Source: Mesorhizobium sp. M00.F.Ca.ET.216.01.1.1
Lineage (GTDB): Bacteria; Pseudomonadota; Alphaproteobacteria; Rhizobiales; Rhizobiaceae
Assembly: GCF_004010325.2 (NCBI RefSeq)
Contig: NZ_SADR02000002.1
Location: forward strand, 62,001-126,000
Length of the DNA stretch: 64,000 nucleotides
Direction of reading: 5' to 3'
The notes under the pieces are model-generated. The model ran no database searches and was not told the origin of the DNA. It worked only from the letters and a program-made list of their open reading frames with translations. The position numbers were made by a program, and so were the translations under genes. The first letter of the stretch is position 1. The number at the start of each line of letters is the position of its first letter. Below are positions 1-8,672 of this stretch, in pieces.

Positions 1-1344
1 ATAGATAGGCCGCCACGCGGGACCGACCTTGCGCGCCTTGATGGCCGCGGCAAGCGCCTCGTTTGCCTGCCCTGCAAACAGGTAAGCGAGTGCCAGAATA
101 TTGAACCATACGAAATTCTGCGGATCGTGCGGGTTCAGCAAAAGACCGTGTTCGAGCGGCGCTATCGCTTCGGATGCGCTGCCGCGGAAGAGCTGCCCCA
201 TTCCCATCGCCAGATGGCCAAGGGCGAAACTTGGGCTGATCTCGATCGCCGTTTCCGCGGCAAGGACGGCCTGTTCCGGCGCATTGGCGTAGGTGCTGCA
301 AATGGCCAGTGCGTAATGCGAATAGGGGTTCTTCTCGTCGAGCCGAACCGCCTTCAAGGCCGCGTCCAGGCCTTCCCGGATATCCTGTGCCGGTTTGTCG
401 CTCCAGCCGTAAGCGACGATGCCGGCGCTGACGCGGCCGAGCCAGAGATGGGCTTCCGCGAGTTCAGGATCAAGCCGGCACGCCTCGCGAAACAGCCCGC
501 GGGCGCGCAAGTGAGTCTGCCGGCCGACATGGTGAAAATGCCAGGTACCTTGCCGCACCAGGTCCCAGGCCGTCGCGTTTCCACTGCTGCGTGCAGTGGC
601 TGGAAGTGACTCCGTCCTGAGCAGTTCGGGCTCGATCGCTCCTGCCACCCGCTCGGCTATGGCGTCCTGGACGGCGAATACCTCAGTAATCTCCATCTCG
701 TATCGCTCGGCCCAGATCTGGTTGGCCGAGGCGGCATCGACCAGTTGCGCCGAGACCCGGATGTGCTGGCCGGATCGGCGCACGCTGCCTTCCAGCACAT
801 AGCGGACGCCAAGCTCGCGGGCCACCTGTTTGGAGTCGACCGATTTGTCCTTGTAGACGAAGCTGGAACCGTGCCCAATCACCCGGAACCACCGGAACCT
901 CGTCAGCGCTGTGATGATGTCCTCGGTGATGCCGTCGGCCAGATAGGCCTGTTGCTTGTCGTCGCCGACATTGGCGAACGGCAGGACCGCAATCGACGGT
1001 CTTTCGGGGAGGCTCGCCGGCTGGCCGGGGCTTGGCAGCGCGCCGTCTGCAACGGCATTCAGTACGCGGACGCTGCCGGCGAAACGATATCCGGTGCGGG
1101 GGACCGTCGCGATCCACTGGCTGCCGTCCGGCTGTGGGCCGAGCAGCTTGCGCAGTGCCGCAATCTGCACCGAGAGATTGCTCTCCTCGACAACCGTATC
1201 GGACCATGCCGCTTCCATGAGCATCGTCTTGCTCAGCACCTGCGTCGGTGCCTCCAGCAGGGCCTGAAGCAACGCCAAACCCTTTTGCCCGACCGCTACT
1301 GGCCTGCCCTCGCGAACAAGGGCCCTGCGCGGCACATCGAACAC
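1..1344 (-). CDS. Winged-helix regulator with TolB-like and TPR regions (3' end outside window)
   Basis: Reading leftward there is one uninterrupted frame to the window edge. It encodes an N-terminal OmpR/PhoB-type winged helix (FGPFVFD, then VEESNLSVQIAALRKLLG and VPRTGYRF), a TolB-like stretch beginning SIAVLPFANVGDD and containing GVRYVLEGSVRR and LVDAASANQIWAERY, and TPR-like helices. The gene at 6428-7936 is a paralog of the same architecture, so this is probably a transcription regulator whose TPR part senses a ligand or partner. The start is unclear. The first in-frame start codon is GTG at 1344, but the conserved FAFGPF motif lies upstream of it, and the only nearby ATG (1366) is in another frame, so a start-proximal indel is possible. 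It is divergent from the cupin gene. The C-terminus is not in the window. Confidence 0.75.
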   Translation of the reverse strand, partial: MFDVPRRALVREGRPVAVGQKGLALLQALLEAPTQVLSKTMLMEAAWSDTVVEESNLSVQIAALRKLLGPQPDGSQWIATVPRTGYRFAGSVRVLNAVADGALPSPGQPASLPERPSIAVLPFANVGDDKQQAYLADGITEDIITALTRFRWFRVIGHGSSFVYKDKSVDSKQVARELGVRYVLEGSVRRSGQHIRVSAQLVDAASANQIWAERYEMEITEVFAVQDAIAERVAGAIEPELLRTESLPATARSSGNATAWDLVRQGTWHFHHVGRQTHLRARGLFREACRLDPELAEAHLWLGRVSAGIVAYGWSDKPAQDIREGLDAALKAVRLDEKNPYSHYALAICSTYANAPEQAVLAAETAIEISPSFALGHLAMGMGQLFRGSASEAIAPLEHGLLLNPHDPQNFVWFNILALAYLFAGQANEALAAAIKARKVGPAWRPIY

Positions 1345-1393
1345 GAACGGGCCGAACGCGAAGCATCGCGGTGCTGAAGTATCTCGCTTCCCG

Positions 1394-1414
1394 GCTTCGG
1401 AAGAATTCGGAACT
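1394..1414 (-). promoter_or_regulatory. Candidate operator with tandem TTCC half-sites
   Basis: On the minus strand the element reads AGTTCCGAA, TT, CTTCC, G, AAGC. It matches 18 of 21 positions with the element at 6392-6412 in front of the paralogous regulator. The two TTCCRAA half-sites start exactly 10 bp apart, the kind of tandem arrangement bound by OmpR/PhoB winged-helix domains. Autoregulation is inferred. Confidence 0.5.
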
Positions 1415-1497
1415 TTTCGCCTCCCCTTTAAGGACTTGGGCTGGACGCGCGGCCATTCTGGTCATCTTCGCACAGACTAACACAAATGGAGGTCGAA

Positions 1498-1944
1498 ATG
1501 ACGATGTTGAAGCTACCGGCCGCAGCGGACAATGCTGGGTCCAGCGACGGAAAGGCTGTGGTCGTCAGGGGTGGCGAGGCTTACCGGGCCGAACAGGGAT
1601 CGGACTATCTGCCGGGCATCAGTTCTGAGACGGTCGGAGCCAAGGCGCTTTGGCTTGGCGTCGCCTCAATCCCGCCGGGGAAGCGTACCAAGGCCCACGT
1701 CCACGCGCGTCACGAAACAGCATTTTATATGCTGAGCGGCGACGAGTTGGAAATGTGGAGCGGCGACGAACTCCAGTTTCGCGACGTCGTCCATCCTGGC
1801 GACTACCTCTATATTCCGGCCAATGTGCTCCACGTTGCCGTGAACCGGGCAAGCCAGCCGGCCGTCTTCATCGGCGCCCGCAACGAACCGACTGCACAGG
1901 AAAGCGTCGTTCTGTTCCCGGAGATGGACAACCGGGTGCCATGA
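1498..1944 (+). CDS. Cupin domain protein
   Basis: 148-residue single-domain cupin. The start at 1498 (MTMLKLP) is preferred over an in-frame ATG 12 bp upstream because GGAGG lies just ahead of it. Cupin motif 1 is visible around residues 65-85 (KAHVHARHETAFYMLSGDEL, with His, His and Glu as candidate metal ligands), and motif 2 follows as HPGDYLYIPANVLHVAVN. Small cupins of this type bind a divalent metal and act as dioxygenases, isomerases or sensors; the substrate cannot be told from sequence. It precedes the RidA-family gene by 60 bp on the same strand, so the two may be co-transcribed, and it is divergent from the TPR regulator. Confidence 0.85.
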   Translation: MTMLKLPAAADNAGSSDGKAVVVRGGEAYRAEQGSDYLPGISSETVGAKALWLGVASIPPGKRTKAHVHARHETAFYMLSGDELEMWSGDELQFRDVVHPGDYLYIPANVLHVAVNRASQPAVFIGARNEPTAQESVVLFPEMDNRVP

Positions 1945-2004
1945 TTTTGGCCGCGCCGGCGCCAGCCCGCTTGATCGACGCAACAGTTAATCGATGAGGG
2001 TCCC

Positions 2005-2490
2005 ATGTCACGTATCGAAGCAAAACTCGACGAGATGGACTTGGTTTTGCCGGAACCTCTGTTGGTGCCAAGCGGCCTCCGAATGCCGTTCGCCTGGGTT
2101 CGCATCCGCGGCAAACGCGCGTTCGTCTCCGGACACGTTCCACAGAATGCGGATGGCAGTCTGGCGCAACCGCTTGGGAAGGTGGGGGCGGATGTCACTC
2201 CGGAAGAAGGCTATCAGGCGGCCCGGCTAGTGGCACTTGGTCATTTGGCCAGCCTCAAGCGCGCGCTCGGCGATCTTGATCGCGTCACAGCCTGGCTGCG
2301 GGTTTTTGCGATGGTCAATGTTGCACCCGGCTTCGATCAAACGCCGCGCGTCACCAACGGGTACTCAGATCTCATTCTGGAGCTTTACGGAGCAGACGTG
2401 GGTATGCACGCGCGCTCATCGATTGGCATGATGATCCCGCTGAACGCTCCAGTAAATTGTGAAGCCGAAGTGGAGGTCGACGGCGGATGA
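2005..2490 (+). CDS. RidA (YjgF/YER057c) family protein
   Basis: 161 residues, of the longer RidA subclass (about 150-160 residues) rather than the 130-residue archetype. RidA archetypes deaminate reactive enamine/imine intermediates of amino-acid metabolism, but many subfamily members lack that activity. Visible family features are the strand AFVSGHVPQ and the C-terminal segment ARSSIGMMIPLNAPVNCEAEVEV, in which Arg and Glu would line the active-site cleft. It probably shares a transcript with the upstream cupin gene and is convergent with the sugar ABC operon. The substrate is unknown. Confidence 0.85.
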   Translation: MSRIEAKLDEMDLVLPEPLLVPSGLRMPFAWVRIRGKRAFVSGHVPQNADGSLAQPLGKVGADVTPEEGYQAARLVALGHLASLKRALGDLDRVTAWLRVFAMVNVAPGFDQTPRVTNGYSDLILELYGADVGMHARSSIGMMIPLNAPVNCEAEVEVDGG

Positions 2491-2570
2491 CGCGCCCAGC
2501 TCGTCGCCGGTTTTTGTGCCACTCCCAGGATTCGCGTCCTGATTGATGGAGACCTGCCAGAACGAGGTGC

Positions 2571-3413
2571 TCACCCCTTCACCCCGCCCGCGGTGAGGCC
2601 GGAGATGATCTTGCGCTGGAAGATGAGGACGAGGATGACGAGCGGCACGGTGACGATCACCGATGCCGCCATGATGTTACCCCATGGGATCTCGAACTGC
2701 GAGCTTCCGGAGAGCAGCGCGATCGCCACCGGCACGGTTCGCTGCTCGTTGCTGGAGGTGAACGTCAGAGCGAAGAGGAACTCGTTCCACGCGCCGATGA
2801 AGGCGAGCAGCCCAGTGGTCGCCAGCGCCGGCCACATCAGCGGCAGAAAGACGCGTGTGATGATGATCCACGGCGTCGCGCCGTCGATGATCGCCGCCTC
2901 CTCGATCTCGAGCGGCAGATCGCGAACGAAGGCGGTGAGCACCCAGACGGTGAACGGCAGCGTGAAGATCATATACGAGAAGATCAGCGCGAAGAGCGAG
3001 TTGTAGAGGCCGAAGGTGCGGATCAGTTCGAAGAGGCCGGCCAGCACCGCCAATGGCGGGAACATCGAGACGGACAGGATGATGAACAGCAGAGCAGAGC
3101 GGCCGCGGAAGCGGATGCGCGCAAGCGCATAGGCGGCGGTGACGCCGAGGAACAGCGAAATGGCGACGACGGCGCTCGAGACAAACAGCGAGTTCAAGAG
3201 GTTGCGCAGGAAAGTGCCCTCGGTGAGGACGTTCCTGTAATTGCTGAAGCTGATCATCTTCGGCCAGTAGTCGACCTCGAAGAGCACCGTCCCCGATTTC
3301 AGGCTGGTGACGATGGCGTAGTAGAACGGGAACACCGCGACGACGACGATGACGGCGACGAGGAGATAGAATGCCGTGCGCTTGACGATCCACATGGTCA
3401 ATGGCCGCCGCAT
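2571..3413 (-). CDS. Carbohydrate ABC transporter permease (MalG type)
   Basis: 280-residue inner-membrane permease of the MalFG family. It has about six membrane segments, starting TAFYLLVAVIVVVAVFPFYY. The EAA loop that contacts the ATPase is visible as EEAAIIDGATPWIIITRVFL. Start: its ATG overlaps the TGA of the preceding permease gene (TGATG at 3411-3415), indicating translational coupling; an open frame continues upstream but has no homology. It is the last gene of the operon: no ATPase gene follows, and the next gene (RidA family) is convergent 80 bp away. Confidence 0.93.
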   Translation of the reverse strand: MRRPLTMWIVKRTAFYLLVAVIVVVAVFPFYYAIVTSLKSGTVLFEVDYWPKMISFSNYRNVLTEGTFLRNLLNSLFVSSAVVAISLFLGVTAAYALARIRFRGRSALLFIILSVSMFPPLAVLAGLFELIRTFGLYNSLFALIFSYMIFTLPFTVWVLTAFVRDLPLEIEEAAIIDGATPWIIITRVFLPLMWPALATTGLLAFIGAWNEFLFALTFTSSNEQRTVPVAIALLSGSSQFEIPWGNIMAASVIVTVPLVILVLIFQRKIISGLTAGGVKG

Positions 3414-4357
3414 CAGTAACCCCTGTCCAGTCTTACCCGGCCCAGCCACAGGACCAGCATGGTCAGCAAAGCGAGGATGGCGAAGAGCAGCGTCGAGGCG
3501 GCGGAACCGTAGGCGAACTTGTCGAACTCGAACAGGTTCTCGCGGGCAAACACCGACATCGACTTGGTCTGCACATTGTTCGGCGTCAGCACGTAGATCA
3601 GGTCGAAGATGCGCAGCGCATCGAGACCGCGGAAGATCACGGCCACCATCAGTGCCGGCCGGATAAGCGGTAGGGTCACCCTCCAGAAAACCCGCCACGG
3701 GCTGACGCCGTCGAGCTTGGCGACCTCGAAGATCTCCTGCGGCAGCATCTGCAGCGCGGCAAGGATGAGAAGCGCCATGAACGGTGTCGTCTTCCAGATA
3801 TCGACGATGAGGACGGCGAACATCGCCGTATCGGCGTTGGCCGTCCAGGCGATCTTGGTGCTGATCAGGCCGAGCCTGAGAAGGACATCGTTGATGATGC
3901 CGAACTGGTCGTTGAGCATCCACTGCCACATCTTTGCCGAGACGATGGTCGGGATCGTCCAGGGGATGAGGATGGCGGCGCGCACGATGCCGCGGCCGCG
4001 GAATTCGGCGTTGAGCACCAGGGCTACGATCATGCCGAGGATCGTCTCGCAGGTCACCGATATCACCGCGAAGCGCAAAGTGTTCCAGACTGCGCGCCAC
4101 CAGACCGGATCGACGAGCAAGCCGTCATAGATGACCCGGCCGCTCGGCATTTGCAGGATCGAGAAATAGTTGGCGAAGCCGATCCACCGACTGGCTTCGA
4201 GGTCGGCCAGCGAGGCGTCTGTGAAGCTGAAATAGATCGTGCGCAGGAGCGGCCAGCCGGCAACGGCGGCAAGCACGATCAGCATCGGGGCAAGGAACAG
4301 CCACGCCGAGCGCGCGCGCTGACGCATCAGCTGCGGGCGCCGGCGCGGCGAGGTCAC
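3413..4357 (-). CDS. Carbohydrate ABC transporter permease (MalF type)
   Basis: 314 residues; first permease of the operon. An arginine-rich N-terminus (MTSPRRRPQLMRQRAR) is followed by a membrane segment (SAWLFLAPMLIVLAAVAGWP) and further helices of the binding-protein-dependent permease fold. The EAA loop reads EVAKLDGVSPWRVFWRVTLP. It begins at a GTG that overlaps the stop of the binding-protein gene (GTGA) and ends overlapping the next permease, so the three genes form a tight operon. It would pair with the MalG-type permease and an ATPase encoded elsewhere. Confidence 0.93.
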   Translation of the reverse strand: MTSPRRRPQLMRQRARSAWLFLAPMLIVLAAVAGWPLLRTIYFSFTDASLADLEASRWIGFANYFSILQMPSGRVIYDGLLVDPVWWRAVWNTLRFAVISVTCETILGMIVALVLNAEFRGRGIVRAAILIPWTIPTIVSAKMWQWMLNDQFGIINDVLLRLGLISTKIAWTANADTAMFAVLIVDIWKTTPFMALLILAALQMLPQEIFEVAKLDGVSPWRVFWRVTLPLIRPALMVAVIFRGLDALRIFDLIYVLTPNNVQTKSMSVFARENLFEFDKFAYGSAASTLLFAILALLTMLVLWLGRVRLDRGY

Positions 4358-5622
4358 CAGGCGGCGCCCTTGAGCTTGGTCAAGGATACTTCGAGATCGG
4401 CAAGGTTGTCGGCAGCCGTGCCCTCGCCGGATATGGTCTTGTGGACGGCGGTCCAGAACTGGCTCGATACCTCGTTGTAGCGGACCTTGGCCTGGGCCGA
4501 GGGACGTGGCACCGCGTTGAGGAAGACCTCCTTCCAGCGCGGAATGACCGGCTGTTTCCTGGCGATGTCGGCATCGTCATAGAGCGCCTGGATGGTCGGC
4601 AGGTATGACGCGTTCAAGGCGCGGTATTTCTGCATCTCGGGAGACGCGATCCATTTGACCAGTTCGATCGCGGCATCCGGGTTCTTCGAATATTTGGAAA
4701 CCGCGAGGTTCCAGCCGCCAAGCGTTGCAGCGGGGCGGGCGCCCTCACCCGACCCCGGCGGCAGCGTGGTCACGTCGAACTTGCCTTTGATGGGCGAGCC
4801 TTCGCTTTCGCCGAGCGAATAGGCGTAGGGCCAGTTGCGCATGAAGACAGCGTTGCCGGTCTGCCAGACACCGCGTGACTCTTCCTCCTGGTAGGCCAGA
4901 ACGCCGGGAGGCGAGATGGTTCCCACCCAGCCCCTGGCCATTTCGAGGGCGGCGGCCGCTTTCGGGTTGTTGATCGAAATGGTGCCGTCAGGCTCGACGA
5001 TCTGGCCGCCGCCGTTCGACATCACCCATTCGAGCGCGTCGCAGGTCAGCCCCTCATAGGCGTTGCCCTGGAAGACGAAGCCCCATATGTCCTTGTTGCC
5101 GGCCGCGCGCTCCTTGTCCATGACAAGCTTGGCGGTGTCGGCAAGCTCGGCCCAGGTGGCCGGGAGCTTGACGCCGTATTTGTCGAGCAGGTCCTTGCGG
5201 TAATAGAGCGCCGGAGCATCGGTGAATATCGGCAAGGCGACCAGTTTGCCATCGACTGTCTGCGACTGGATGATCTGCGGGAAATGGGCGCCAACGACAT
5301 CCTTGGTCGCTTCGGTCAGGTCGACGAGCTGGCTTGCAAGCTGCGGCGCCCAGATGACATCCGTCTGGTAGACATCGATGTCGCTGTTGCCGGCGGCGAG
5401 CCAGAGCCTGTACTGGCCGAACTGATCCGTCGTCGAGGGCGGCATCGGAACGACGGTGACCTTGTTGCCGGTCTTCTTCTCGTATTGATCGAGTATCTCG
5501 CGAAGGACTTTCTGGCCAACACCGGTATCGCCCGACACCATGGAGAGATCGACAGCCCTGGCCGGGCCGGCCGCCAGAACGGCACCTAGGGCAAACGCAA
5601 GAAATGCGTGAGGAAACTTCAT
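4354..5622 (-). CDS. Sugar ABC transporter substrate-binding protein (ThuE/trehalose-maltose-like)
   Basis: 422-residue family 1 extracellular solute-binding protein. The start at 5622 (MKFPHAFLAF) follows an AGGGAGGT ribosome site; a longer in-frame ORF lacks signal-peptide logic. The signal peptide ends about residue 23 (GPARA) and there is no lipobox, so the product is a soluble periplasmic protein. The mature protein begins VDLSMVSGDTGVGQK and contains VFQGNAYEGLTCDALEW and a conserved NWPYAYSLGE segment, which remind me of trehalose/maltose-type binders such as rhizobial ThuE; this assignment rests on memory of the family. It is the first gene of the operon with two permeases. A 433-bp upstream spacer holds a perfect dyad at 5753-5766. 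Confidence 0.9.
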   Translation of the reverse strand: MKFPHAFLAFALGAVLAAGPARAVDLSMVSGDTGVGQKVLREILDQYEKKTGNKVTVVPMPPSTTDQFGQYRLWLAAGNSDIDVYQTDVIWAPQLASQLVDLTEATKDVVGAHFPQIIQSQTVDGKLVALPIFTDAPALYYRKDLLDKYGVKLPATWAELADTAKLVMDKERAAGNKDIWGFVFQGNAYEGLTCDALEWVMSNGGGQIVEPDGTISINNPKAAAALEMARGWVGTISPPGVLAYQEEESRGVWQTGNAVFMRNWPYAYSLGESEGSPIKGKFDVTTLPPGSGEGARPAATLGGWNLAVSKYSKNPDAAIELVKWIASPEMQKYRALNASYLPTIQALYDDADIARKQPVIPRWKEVFLNAVPRPSAQAKVRYNEVSSQFWTAVHKTISGEGTAADNLADLEVSLTKLKGAAW

Positions 5623-6055
5623 GATGGTGGACCTCCCTTTGGAGCTCAGCCCGGGCGCCGGAGATGGACAAGCCAAAGCCTGCACCTTCCTCCACGCCGG
5701 CCGCTCACAAGACGCGCATTCGCCCTCCCCGCATTGAACTGCAAAGATACGCGTTGGGTTCCCAACACAAAGCGTCGGTAACTGTTACGTCATCTTGCGG
5801 ACGCATCCTGACGCATCCTGTTGGAGCGCACGTCGGTGCCGGACGTTTCGGTCCACGACGAACCCTATCAACCGGCGGCACACTCTGCAGGGCATCACGA
5901 TGTTGTGGGCAGTTGCACCAGCTGACCCCTGGCCATCCTGGGTAGATCGTGCCGTATCCCTTCGTTTGAGAGCAGCGGCCCCGGTGCGCTCGACCGTGCA
6001 GTTATCCGTTGTGAAGCCTTGCTACGGCTTGGAGCCTCCTCATCGCCCGCCGCGG
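5623..6055. other. Intergenic spacer upstream of the sugar-uptake operon
   Basis: 433 bp between the binding-protein gene and the DUF1127 gene. It contains a 14-bp dyad at 5753-5766 and a short tandem duplication of ACGCATCCTG near 5802-5821. I see no convincing gene. The open frames here lack ribosome sites or are antisense to the DUF1127 gene. Confidence 0.5.
5753..5766. promoter_or_regulatory. Perfect dyad, candidate operator of the sugar ABC operon
   Basis: GTTGGG-TT-CCCAAC, about 130 bp upstream of the substrate-binding-protein start. Sugar uptake operons are commonly controlled by LacI-, GntR- or ROK-type repressors that bind such dyads. No regulator gene is adjacent, so the assignment is tentative. 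Confidence 0.3.
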
Positions 6056-6295
6056 TCACCGGCGCCAAAACGGCTTCGCGATCTCAGCCTCGATCTGCTG
6101 CATTGTCAGCCCGATATCGTCGATCAGTTCGGGGGTGTCGTTCGCCAGCCGTGCCAATTCCCAGCGGAAATAGCTGCGTTCGCGCCAGGCCGAGATGAGG
6201 TTTCCCAAGGCCGCCAGGGTATAGGCCCGGCCCGCCGCCTCGGCCGGCCGTGCAGCGTGATCGGCGTTCGATGCGCGGGTGAGAATGGCGTTCAT
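6056..6295 (-). CDS. DUF1127 family small protein
   Basis: 79 residues ending in the typical DUF1127 region: RSYFRWELARLANDTPELIDDIGLTMQQIEAEIAKPFWRR, an arginine-rich amphipathic segment followed by a conserved D-IGL turn. The start at 6295 is the second of two adjacent ATGs and has AGGAGG at the proper 5-nt spacing; the first is too close to it. DUF1127 proteins in alphaproteobacteria are small and basic; some bind RNA or affect phosphate and stress responses, but this member's role is unknown. It is divergent from the TPR regulator at 6428 and could be its target. Confidence 0.85.
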   Translation of the reverse strand: MNAILTRASNADHAARPAEAAGRAYTLAALGNLISAWRERSYFRWELARLANDTPELIDDIGLTMQQIEAEIAKPFWRR

Positions 6296-6391
6296 CATTT
6301 CCTCCTGTCGCCCGTTCGCGGCCGCTTCTGGCCCGAACGATGCGGCAACTATGCGGGAAGCGATGCCCGGCGTAATTAAGCGGCGCTGAAT

Positions 6392-6412
6392 AGTTCCGAA
6401 AACTTCCAAAGC
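6392..6412 (+). promoter_or_regulatory. Candidate operator with tandem TTCC half-sites
   Basis: AGTTCCGAA, AA, CTTCC, A, AAGC, ending 15 bp before the ATG of the TPR regulator; a -10-like CTATAC follows. It is 18/21 identical to the element upstream of the paralogous regulator (1394-1414) in the same orientation relative to the gene. The position suggests promoter or operator function. Confidence 0.5.
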
Positions 6413-6427
6413 GGCTATACATATCCT

Positions 6428-7936
6428 ATGCAGGGACTTCGTTTTGCCTTTGGTCCGTTCGTTTTGAATGCCGAGGCGGGAACGCTGCTTCGGCAGGAAA
6501 TTCCTGTTGCGGTCGGTCATCGCGGATTGCTGCTCCTGGCGGCGTTCGCGAGGCGCCCCAACGAAGTGCTGACCAAATCCGATTTGATGGAAGCGGCATG
6601 GCCGGGGGCAGTCGTCGAGGAGGGCAATCTCACGGTTCAGATTGCTCTTCTTAGGAAGCTTCTCGGCCCGGCGCCCGATGGCCACGAGTGGATCGCGACG
6701 GTCCCGCGTGTGGGATATCGGTTCATCGCAGAGGTCGAAACGATCGGAGGTCTGCAGAAGAGACCGTTGTCACTGCCCGGCAAGCCGTCGATAGCCGTGC
6801 TGCCCTTCGCCAATGTCAGTAACGAGCCCGAGCAGGAATCCTTCGCGGATGGGTTGACCGAAGACCTGATCACCGACCTGTCCCGGATTTCCGGCCTTTT
6901 CGTCATCGCGCGCAATTCGGCCTTCGCCTACAAGGGCAAGGCGATGGATGTGCGCGGGATCGCACAGGACCTTGGCGTGCGCTATCTGCTGGAGGGCAGC
7001 GCGAGGCGCGTCGCGGGACGCGTGCGCATCAACGCACAACTGGTCGACGCGGTGAGTGGCGATCATCTGTGGGCGGAACGCTTCGATCGCAGCCTGGAAG
7101 ATATCTTTGCCGTTCAGGACGAGGTCACCGGCAAGATCGTGGAGGCATTGCTCGGCCGACTGCGCGCGCCGCCGCCGCGCAACCGGCCAAAAAATCTCGA
7201 GGCTCACGATCTCTGCGTGCGGGCGCGCAAGCTGATCGATGATTCGCCGCAGACGGCGCGGGAAGCGCATCTGATGCTCACGCGCGCGGTTTCGCTCGAT
7301 CCCGAATACGCCGAGGCCTATCGCTGGCTTGCCATGAACCACTGGATGGGATGGGTGCATTGGGGCGAACCGATGGAACCAACCCGCAGCCTCGCCATGG
7401 AGCTGGCGCGGAAGGCGGTAGCGCTCGATCCCAACGATGCCGGCTGCCGCTGGGTCCTGGCTAACCTGCTTGCATATGAGCGCAGCTTCGCCGAGGCGGA
7501 TGCGGAATTCGCCAAGGCGATCGAGCTCGACCCGAACGAGGCCGACACCTGGGCGACGCTGTCCGACATCTCTGTGCTGGCCGGCCGGGTCGAGGAGGGC
7601 CTCGAGCAGATTCGCAAGGGGTTCCGGCTCAACCCGTTTCCGGCAAGTTGGTACTATCTGACGCTCGGCCAGGCGCAATATGCGGCTGGCGAGTACGAGG
7701 CCGCTGTCGAGACGCTGCGCAGGGACGAGACTTATCGCACAAGTTCACGCCGGTTCCTGGCGGCAAGCCTTGCCCAACTGGGGCGGCTCGACGAGGCGCG
7801 CGCGGAGGTCGAACTGTTCCTCGTCAGCAATCCGCATTTCACAATCCGCCACTGGGCCACGACAGAGCCATTCCGCGACGCTACGACGCTCGAGCATTTT
7901 GTCGACGGCTATCGCAAGGCAGGCCTGCCGGAATGA
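6428..7936 (+). CDS. Winged-helix transcription regulator with TolB-like and TPR regions
   Basis: 502 residues. Residues 1-105 form an OmpR/PhoB-type winged helix (LRFAFGPFVLNAEAG at the start, VPRVGYRFIAE at the end) without a receiver domain, as in CadC/adenylate-cyclase-associated regulators. Residues about 118-245 are the TolB-like region (SIAVLPFANVSNE, GVRYLLEGSARR, AERFDRSLEDIFAVQ). The remainder is TPR-like helices with YAEAYRWLAMNHWMGW and further pairs. There is no membrane segment, so it is probably cytoplasmic. Its ligand is unknown. It is a paralog of the partial gene at the window start and shares an upstream element with it (6392-6412). Confidence 0.88.
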   Translation: MQGLRFAFGPFVLNAEAGTLLRQEIPVAVGHRGLLLLAAFARRPNEVLTKSDLMEAAWPGAVVEEGNLTVQIALLRKLLGPAPDGHEWIATVPRVGYRFIAEVETIGGLQKRPLSLPGKPSIAVLPFANVSNEPEQESFADGLTEDLITDLSRISGLFVIARNSAFAYKGKAMDVRGIAQDLGVRYLLEGSARRVAGRVRINAQLVDAVSGDHLWAERFDRSLEDIFAVQDEVTGKIVEALLGRLRAPPPRNRPKNLEAHDLCVRARKLIDDSPQTAREAHLMLTRAVSLDPEYAEAYRWLAMNHWMGWVHWGEPMEPTRSLAMELARKAVALDPNDAGCRWVLANLLAYERSFAEADAEFAKAIELDPNEADTWATLSDISVLAGRVEEGLEQIRKGFRLNPFPASWYYLTLGQAQYAAGEYEAAVETLRRDETYRTSSRRFLAASLAQLGRLDEARAEVELFLVSNPHFTIRHWATTEPFRDATTLEHFVDGYRKAGLPE

Positions 7937-8009: not shown

Positions 8010-8520
8010 TTACTTCGTGTTTGCTGGTACATATTCCATGCCCAAGACGCCATTGGTGAAGGGCGTCGCCGAGATCAGCTCAAGTTCGTGCTGTTCACCA
8101 GGCGCGAAGAACGGCTTTCCCTGACCGAGAGCGACGGGATAGCTGAGAAGCCTGATGCGGTCGACGAGGCCGTGTCGCAGCAATTCCTGATATTGCCGCC
8201 ACTGCCTTGCTTCAGCTTTCTGACCGCTTCCGGCAGTGCACCCTTCAGCAACTCGGAGGGCTTCCAATCGAGTTTTTTCAATGTCGTCGACGCAACATAT
8301 TTTGGCGTGAATTGAACCTGTCGGCGAAATCTCCGGTTTCTTTGGGCCAAGAGCTGGCAAAAATTTGATATGTAGTGCGCCCCAAGAGCATGGCGCCGCT
8401 GTCTGAAAGTTCGTCATTCTTGAATTTATCCATTTCAGAGTTCCAGGTTGCCTGCGTCAACTTTTCGACGTCGGCAATGCCATCAACGCTGATGAATTCG
8501 GTGACGATAATTTTCCTCAT
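8010..8520 (-). pseudogene. Frameshifted dihydrofolate-reductase-like (RibD C-terminal) protein
   Basis: Three minus-strand frames together spell one protein of the DHFR/RibD-C family, about 170-190 residues when intact. Frame 1 starts at 8520 after a GGGAG site (MRKIIVTEFISVDG ... GAMLLGRTTYQIF ... DFADRFNS). Frame 2 continues from about 8310 (TPKYVASTTLKKLDW ... LKQGSGGNI). Frame 3 runs from about 8190 to the stop (LLRHGLVDRIRLLSYPV, LGQGKPFF, ending YVPANTK). The first shift fits loss of one or a few bases; the second coincides with loss of several residues after GSGGNI. The gene cannot make the full enzyme. Immediately upstream is a short open stretch (ADIQVPRNWYLKSAALLANI) that may be another gene remnant. 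Confidence 0.8.
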
Positions 8521-8672
8521 TTCGCTCCCCATTTGTTAGAGAGATCGAGTGGATGCGGTGCCGACGATGTTGGCCAGCAGGGCGGCGGATTTGAGGTACC
8601 AATTGCGCGGCACCTGTATGTCGGCCTCCACCCCTTACGGACATCCCGACCGAGGCTCTACCCACGCGTCTC

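What the first reader, a model, noticed from the sequence alone, without database searches (positions are those of the whole stretch)
1394..6412. Two paralogous TPR regulators share a tandem-repeat element at their starts
Seen: 1394-1414 (minus strand) and 6392-6412 (plus strand) agree at 18 of 21 positions and stand just ahead of the two winged-helix/TolB-like/TPR genes in the same orientation. TTCCGAA and TTCCRAA begin 10 bp apart. Known: OmpR/PhoB-type domains bind tandem half-sites with about 10-11 bp period. Inferred: both regulators bind this element, auto- and cross-regulate, and may control the divergent cupin/RidA and DUF1127 genes. No other copy was noticed in the window.
Basis: partly seen in the sequence, partly recalled or inferred. 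Interest (0 to 1): 0.62.

Follow-up and report, generated by a model that had tools for sequence, protein, structure and literature searches.

The report
Shared operator of TPR regulator genes
Two regulator genes carry, just before their start, the same three-fold repeated DNA sequence that recurs ahead of many related regulator genes in other root-nodule-type bacteria, so it is very likely the docking site through which these regulators control themselves and the gene next door.

Summary
The 18/21 match is real, and the element is larger than described: three direct repeats, about (n)CCRAAnnn TTCCRAAnnn TTCCRAAnnn, ~10 bp apart. The last ends ~5-8 bp before a -10-like hexamer, and the element usually lies 14-36 bp before the regulator's start. 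The own genome has only two exact TTCCRAA-N3-TTCCRAA sites, both here. In the genus, 27 of 51 exact sites read lie just ahead of a winged-helix/TPR gene. A weight matrix built from other regulators finds the element in 70 of 80 orthologues of the window's second regulator within 400 bp, and in 79 of 80 within 2 kb. In 24 of these 79 it is displaced from the regulator, yet 83-107 bp from a divergent start signature in 22 of the 24. In six same-genus genomes, 16 of 16 genes with recognition helix VEE[GS]NL[ST]VQ carry it, against 2 of 34 others. In another family 10 of 10 with that helix have the element and a divergent cupin gene, against 0 of 13 others with the element. Best reading: an operator shared by autoregulation and control of the divergent neighbour. 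Binding and sign are untested.

The parts
1..1374 (-). Winged-helix/TolB-like/TPR regulator gene P0001 (runs off the left edge; start codon not identified)
   Evidence: translation; Pfam Trans_reg_C 57.6 bits, TPR; start-codon analysis
1393..1422 (-). Element A: three 10-bp direct repeats AGGCGAAAAG TTCCGAATTC TTCCGAAGCC
   Evidence: matrix score 33.0; TTCCGAATTCTTCCGAA in 10 of 10 orthologues, own gene included
1498..1944 (+). Divergent cupin gene (likely target); start 75 bp from element A, GGAGG before ATG 1498
   Evidence: Pfam Cupin_2; divergent cupin next to element-bearing regulators in another family, 10 of 10
2005..2490 (+). RidA/YjgF-like gene downstream of the cupin gene (possible operon)
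   Evidence: Pfam YjgF_endoribonc; a similar ORF is divergent from the regulator of L159
6056..6298 (-). Divergent DUF1127-like small gene (likely target); start 85 bp from element B
   Evidence: Pfam DUF1127 E 0.12 in the window, E 0.084 in the orthologue of L176, both well below the curated cut-off; neighbour conserved
6384..6413 (+). Element B: three 10-bp direct repeats CGCTGAATAG TTCCGAAAAC TTCCAAAGCG
   Evidence: matrix score 33.1; matrix hits in 79 of 80 orthologues within 2 kb
6416..6421 (+). -10-like hexamer TATACA, 5 bp after the last TTCCAAA, 6 bp before ATG 6428 (suggests a leaderless transcript; inference)
   Evidence: read; TA-rich hexamers 4-8 bp after the last repeat in many element-bearing regulators, judged by eye, not counted
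6428..7936 (+). Winged-helix/TolB-like/TPR regulator gene P0002 (502 aa)
   Evidence: AlphaFold2 model mean pLDDT 78.2, pTM 0.56: winged helix ~1-106, alpha/beta domain ~120-222, helical repeats ~223-500

Best explanation
Each copy is the operator of a one-component regulator, probably soluble, made of an OmpR/CadC-type winged helix, a TolB-like alpha/beta domain and a TPR solenoid. The operator is three direct half-sites about one DNA turn apart. The last one abuts the -10 region of the regulator's own, probably leaderless, promoter, so the bound protein sits over the -35 region and controls its own gene. From the same intergenic stretch it controls the divergent neighbour: cupin/RidA for P0001, the DUF1127-like gene for P0002. 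Shown by sequence: the repeats, their geometry, their recurrence, their link with one recognition-helix class and with the divergent neighbour. Inferred: that the regulator itself binds, that P0001 and P0002 can each use the other's site (similar helices), and the sign. My guess is activation of the neighbour, and self-control either as activation in the SARP manner or as repression.
For: Only two exact sites in the genome, both at these genes. 52 exact sites in 44 of 146 genus genomes, against 14 for the reversed control pattern. 27 of 51 read stand 8-28 bp ahead of a winged-helix/TPR gene, in groups 33-45% identical to P0002; 6 more of 51 lie 90-94 bp ahead of a class II aldolase gene, in genomes with a P0001-like regulator on the same contig. 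Weight matrix from 12 non-P0002 regulators: 70 of 80 P0002 orthologues score 12.5-34.9 within 400 bp; best of 400 control stretches 5.1. 79 of 80 within 2 kb; 24 displaced by 79-1886 bp from P0002, 22 of these 83-107 bp from a divergent start signature; median 89 bp over 71 of the 79. Helix class: 16 of 16 against 2 of 34 (Fisher p 3e-11). Another family: 10 of 10 against 0 of 13 (p 9e-7), the ten with divergent cupin. P0001 relatives: 25 of 25 with this helix score 8.9 or more, the one without (L174) -12.2.
Against: No binding or expression data. The helix tests are not corrected for phylogeny; the class and the score limit of 8 were defined after seeing the scores; 3 of the 16 positives (L295, L322, L323) are genes used to train the matrix and others are close relatives of training genes. 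Two genes with another helix (L314, L333) score above 8, and L021 scores 17.0, all with repeats in or beside the first codons. Near-class helices L304 and L298 score only 3.4 and 2.7. L222 lacks the element and L346 (helix NLPVQ) scores -2.4. Within P0002 orthologues alone the element columns (0.83-0.87) are no more conserved than third codon positions (0.89) and hardly more than their flanks (0.73-0.85) (register blurred by 10/11-bp steps). 18 of the 51 exact genus sites read are neither ahead of such a regulator nor aldolase-linked. Outside the genus 2 of 27 exact sites read stand ahead of such a gene.
Confidence: 0.82

Rival explanations
1. The element is the binding site of some other factor (or an alternative sigma factor's promoter box) that co-controls this gene family; the regulators do not bind it.
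For: The element touches the -10 region and might be a promoter part; a few genes with other helices score too.
Against: Its presence follows the recognition helix of the adjacent gene: 16 of 16 against 2 of 34, and 10 of 10 against 0 of 13. Displaced copies lie up to 1.9 kb from the regulator but stay near the divergent start, so it is not simply the regulator's -35 box. It is a direct repeat, not a palindrome. An ECF-type GGAAC box (motif recalled) is absent from the TTCTCAA/TTCCAAA versions.
Confidence: 0.1
2. The element serves the divergent neighbour only; its closeness to the regulator start is a by-product of divergent arrangement, with little autoregulation.
For: In 24 of 79 P0002 orthologues the element is moved away from P0002 but kept near the divergent start. 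In some Rhizobium loci (L245, L247), where no DUF1127-like ORF was found, it stands 110 bp before an MFS gene.
Against: In the other 55 of 79 the last repeat is within 20 bp of the P0002 start, and in the other groups it stands 14-36 bp before the regulator, with a -10-like hexamer a few bp on (by eye).
Confidence: 0.2
3. Chance similarity, or residual identity from a recent duplication of the two regulator genes.
For: Half-sites are short, and the loose pattern is near chance in the window.
Against: The two proteins are only ~40% identical, and the element recurs ahead of many paralogues, species and a second family.
Confidence: 0.01

Closest known systems
SARP regulators (AfsR and relatives) and their direct-repeat boxes; PMC10936776, passages seen
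   Same: OmpR-type winged helix followed by helical domains; direct repeats one turn apart overlapping the -35 region and close to the -10.
   Different: Here three repeats of ~10 bp with ~5-8 bp to a -10-like hexamer (SARP: 11 or 22 bp steps, 8 bp to the -10); no BTAD match in Pfam at E<=0.001; TolB-like domain present; the operator is shared with a divergent gene.
CadC / ToxR / HilA-type one-component winged-helix regulators
   Same: NCBIfam CadC 72.9 bits and HilA/EilA 59.8 bits for P0002; the model's winged helix matches DNA-bound ToxR 8b4b (Z 16.5, rmsd 2.0 A over 103 residues); weak overall Foldseek match to the CadC periplasmic domain 3ly8 (E 1.3e-6, TM 0.24 by query and 0.34 by target length, rmsd 17.4 A).
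   Different: Far below the curated NCBIfam cut-offs (400 and 589 bits), so not these equivalogs; no membrane segment was noticed (no predictor run); the HilA box could not be checked in this library.
OmpR/PhoB-family tandem half-sites (PhoP direct repeats, KdpE half-sites; starts of abstracts seen in the listing)
   Same: Direct-repeat half-sites bound by winged-helix domains.
   Different: No receiver domain among the Pfam matches; three half-sites; the step is 10 (sometimes 11) bp.
Small DUF1127 proteins of Agrobacterium (PMC12501420; start of abstract and passages)
   Same: Putative target of P0002 is a DUF1127-like small protein.
   Different: ~80 aa and well below Pfam's cut-off for DUF1127; no regulator or operator of this kind appears in the passages seen.

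Membership tests
OmpR/PhoB-type winged-helix regulator | Trans_reg_C domain | tested here: met
   52.2 and 57.6 bits against cut-off 26.2
OmpR/PhoB-type winged-helix regulator | binds tandem direct half-sites | not testable with these tools
   Repeats are present and linked to the helix class; binding needs the bench
SARP | BTAD domain after the winged helix | tested here: inconclusive
   Not among the Pfam families at E<=0.001 for P0001 or P0002; the fold search was filled by TPR folds
SARP | direct repeats with 11- or 22-bp step, 3' repeat 8 bp from the -10 | tested here: not met
   Step 10 (some 11) bp and mostly ~5 bp to a -10-like hexamer, by eye; the -10 itself is not mapped
CadC (NCBIfam NF007540 equivalog) | curated score cut-off 400 bits | tested here: not met
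   72.9 bits for P0002, 55.4 for P0001
HilA/EilA (NCBIfam NF009037 equivalog) | curated score cut-off 589 bits | tested here: not met
   59.8 and 65.4 bits, although the match spans residues 5-407 of P0002
CadC/ToxR | membrane segment between winged helix and sensor domain | not tested
   No membrane predictor run; none noticed in the sequence or model
DUF1127 (PF06568), the neighbour | curated score cut-off 23.3 bits | tested here: not met
   12.6 bits in the window, 13.1 in the orthologue of L176; called DUF1127-like only

The most novel reading that the evidence does not exclude
One operator grammar (direct repeats one turn apart abutting a leaderless promoter, shared with a divergent target) may hold for this whole class of CadC/HilA-like TPR regulators, with half-site letters set by a readable recognition-helix motif. 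Sites and targets of hundreds of orphan regulators could then be read from sequence: the NLxVQ helix reads CCRAA, and sister helices have their own repeats (e.g. CCTGAA-like copies at 10-bp steps ahead of VEENTLQVH genes, L313 and L332).
Probability: 0.35. Interest if true: 0.68.

Novelty: new member of a known kind. Interest (0 to 1): 0.52.

Why it matters
Winged-helix/TPR regulators are numerous in these soil and nodule bacteria (3 to 13 winged-helix hits per genome in six genomes), and the literature searches I made for them listed none, or one paper that by title and abstract start is off-topic. A conserved operator with a matching recognition helix gives each a predicted binding site and a predicted target (cupin/RidA, DUF1127-like/MFS, class II aldolase, methyltransferase, or a small-protein family without a Pfam or NCBIfam match), all testable with ordinary binding and reporter assays.

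Tried and rejected
Alternatives considered: recent-duplication identity (proteins ~40% identical); ECF sigma box GGAAC (recalled motif; absent from the orthologue versions); palindromic operator (the P0001 copy contains GAATTC; the others read are direct repeats). The strict two-half-site pattern was too narrow. At order level 33 of 397 genomes had a match; 29 loci were read, 27 of them outside the genus, of which 2 stand before such a regulator (L275, L283); the rest show none, and 3 further sites (G313, G376, G513) were not read. The one exact genus site not read was G145:C24:41728.

Loss of the element in 10 of 80 P0002 loci first looked like counter-evidence. A wider scan showed 9 of the 10 keep it 0.9-1.9 kb upstream. 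L228 has two matrix hits, 14.8 at 18 bp and 30.4 at 836 bp; it counts among the 70 and as displaced. The limit of 9.9 was set after L252 had scored 10.0. Of the 79 loci, 71 gave a divergent start signature (a simple text pattern) nearer than 200 bp; 8 were dropped. The scan of eleven loci on both strands gave one unrelated hit above 4 (L222, 5.1) besides element copies and offset duplicates. Column conservation inside P0002 orthologues did not single out the element. Five of 50 winged-helix hits were unscored and 17 of 30 loci; one search rescored them with a looser search: the five score at most 0.8, and ten more loci of the other family have a winged helix, all without the NLxVQ helix and all below -5. 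A three-copy periodicity search over other helix classes beat its shuffles only for L021, L314, L333, L332 and L298; L313 tied.

Literature searches with no useful paper; the HilA box could not be checked. SARP geometry comes from passages of PMC10936776. The fold search was dominated by TPR folds, so BTAD absence there means nothing.
Full report
OBSERVATION. The two 21-mers exist as described and agree at 18 of 21 positions. TTCCGAA-N3-TTCCRAA without mismatch occurs only at these two places in the window. In the own genome (7.24 Mb, 690 contigs) TTCCRAA-N3-TTCCRAA has exactly two exact sites, these two. Reading the surroundings shows a third, weaker half-site 10 bp further upstream in both: AGGCGAAAAG TTCCGAATTC TTCCGAAGCC (1422-1393, minus) and CGCTGAATAG TTCCGAAAAC TTCCAAAGCG (6384-6413, plus). 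In element B the last TTCCAAA is followed after 5 bp by TATACA and after a further 6 bp by ATG 6428, so the transcript may be leaderless (inference).

THE GENES. P0001 (minus, runs off the left edge) and P0002 (6428-7936) have a Trans_reg_C winged helix and TPR repeats; TolB_N matches P0002, and FlgO matches P0001 just below its cut-off. They are about 40% identical. The AlphaFold2 model of P0002 (11 close sequences; mean pLDDT 78.2, pTM 0.56) shows a winged helix, an alpha/beta domain and a helical-repeat solenoid; the winged helix aligns with DNA-bound ToxR (Z 16.5, rmsd 2.0 A over 103 residues). The genus is very probably Mesorhizobium: the place reported for G145 coincides with the contig coordinates of a named Mesorhizobium wenxiniae record (inference).

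ELEMENT-FIRST SURVEY. In 146 genomes of the genus there are 52 exact TTCCRAA-N3-TTCCRAA sites in 44 genomes; the reversed control pattern has 14. I read 51 of the 52. Twenty-seven stand 8-28 bp ahead of a gene matching the winged helix of P0001 or P0002, including groups 33-45% identical to P0002. Six (L037, L044, L066, L067, L068, L079) lie 90-94 bp ahead of a class II aldolase gene; all six genomes also hold a P0001-like regulator on the same contig. The other 18 show no such link. Outside the genus, 2 of 27 exact sites read stand before such a regulator.

GENE-FIRST SURVEYS. (a) All 10 orthologues of P0001 in the genus (own included) carry TTCCGAATTCTTCCGAA. Of 26 P0001 relatives fetched, the 25 with the NL[ST]VQ helix score 8.9-47.4 on the matrix (three degenerate: L168, L170, L172); L174, with another helix, scores -12.2. 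(b) A 30-column matrix from 12 regulators that are not P0002 orthologues finds the element in 70 of 80 P0002 orthologues from named genomes (scores 12.5-34.9 in the 400 bp upstream; best of 400 control stretches 5.1). A DUF1127-like ORF was found divergently 98-322 bp upstream in 63 of these 70, and in none of the other 10 at that distance. Scanning further, 79 of 80 have the element within 2 kb (limit 9.9, set after one locus scored 10.0); L222 lacks it. (c) In six same-genus genomes all 50 winged-helix hits at E<=1e-6 were fetched and scored (45, five). Of the genes whose recognition helix reads VEE[GS]NL[ST]VQ[IV]A, 16 of 16 score 8.9-43.6; of 34 with other helices 2 score above 8 (Fisher p 3e-11; uncorrected for phylogeny, class and limit chosen after seeing the scores, three of the 16 being training genes). 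The best of 500 shuffled 320-bp stretches scores 5.0. (d) In a genus of another family (f35/g41, probably Bradyrhizobium, unverified) 30 loci were fetched and 23 have a winged helix in the alignment. Ten of these have the NLSVQ helix; all ten carry the element 15-36 bp before the start (scores 22.6-35.6) and a divergent cupin gene at 55-72% identity. The other 13 score -21.6 to -2.4.

DISPLACEMENT. Of the 79 P0002 orthologues with the element, 55 have it within 20 bp of the P0002 start, 14 at 79-208 bp and 10 beyond 400 bp (one of these, L228, has a weaker second hit at 18 bp). Examples in same-genus orthologues show palindromic, repeat-like DNA in between; some show an extra ORF (L239, L248). 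In 22 of the 24 displaced loci a divergent start signature was found, 83-107 bp from the element; over the 71 of 79 loci with such a signature the median is 89 bp. In Rhizobium loci where no DUF1127-like ORF was found the element stands 110 bp before an MFS transporter gene (L245, L247); a similar ORF follows the DUF1127-like gene elsewhere (L178, L186). So the element stays with the divergent side even when the regulator is moved away.

NEIGHBOURS. Other groups have the element 69-110 bp from a divergent start: methyltransferase (L046, L061), cupin (L155, L283), class II aldolase (L172) (Pfam matches for L061, L172 and L283), a protein that resembles the DUF1127-like one by eye only (L033; no Pfam match at E<=0.1), and a ~60-residue family with core EEFRxALDRYxxxYxxxQRR (L043, L167, L173).

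MECHANISM. The regulator most likely docks winged-helix domains side by side on the repeats, over the -35 region of its own promoter, and from there also acts on the divergent promoter. The nearest described geometry is the SARP box: direct repeats at 11- or 22-bp steps, the 3' repeat 8 bp from the -10, overlapping the -35 (PMC10936776, passages). It differs in step, distance and number of repeats, and no BTAD domain was found in Pfam. Self-activation in the SARP manner and self-repression both fit. Cross-regulation of P0001 and P0002 is plausible (helices VEEGNLTVQIALLRK and VEESNLSVQIAALRK) but untested.

VERDICT. It is a new operator of a known kind of regulator.

Noticed in passing
window 1374-1480 (minus), and L149-L158: P0001 has no in-frame ATG, GTG or TTG between the preceding in-frame stop and its first conserved residues (FGPF). 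The same holds in L150, L151, L152 and L158; L154 has a TTG, L153, L155 and L156 an ATG ahead of the element; L157 could not be read in register. How it is started is unclear.
   Followed up: partly
L043, L162-L167, L169, L171, L173, L293 and others: A small-protein family (~60 aa, core EEFRxALDRYxxxYxxxQRR) beside element-bearing regulators, without Pfam or NCBIfam match at E<=0.1 for the three sequences scanned.
   Followed up: partly
L089, L095, L096, L098, L100 and similar loci, upstream of P0002 orthologues: Palindromic repeat-like DNA (resembles rhizobial intergenic mosaic elements, recalled) lies between the element and the P0002 -10 region.
   Followed up: no
L313, L332, L298, L021, L314, L333: Genes with other recognition helices show their own tandem repeats at 10-11-bp steps, e.g. 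CCTGAA-like copies (L313, L332), or CC[CT]GAAA repeats over the first codons (L021, L314, L333).
   Followed up: partly
L175, L191, L195, L206: P0002 orthologues at 84-88% identity occur in records labelled Rhodospirillaceae, Pseudomonas, Xanthobacteraceae and Bosea: horizontal transfer or mislabelled records.
   Followed up: no
window 8010-8532 (minus): Two overlapping ORFs in different frames look like one dihydrofolate-reductase-like (RibD-type) gene that is frameshifted; judged by eye, not searched.
   Followed up: no
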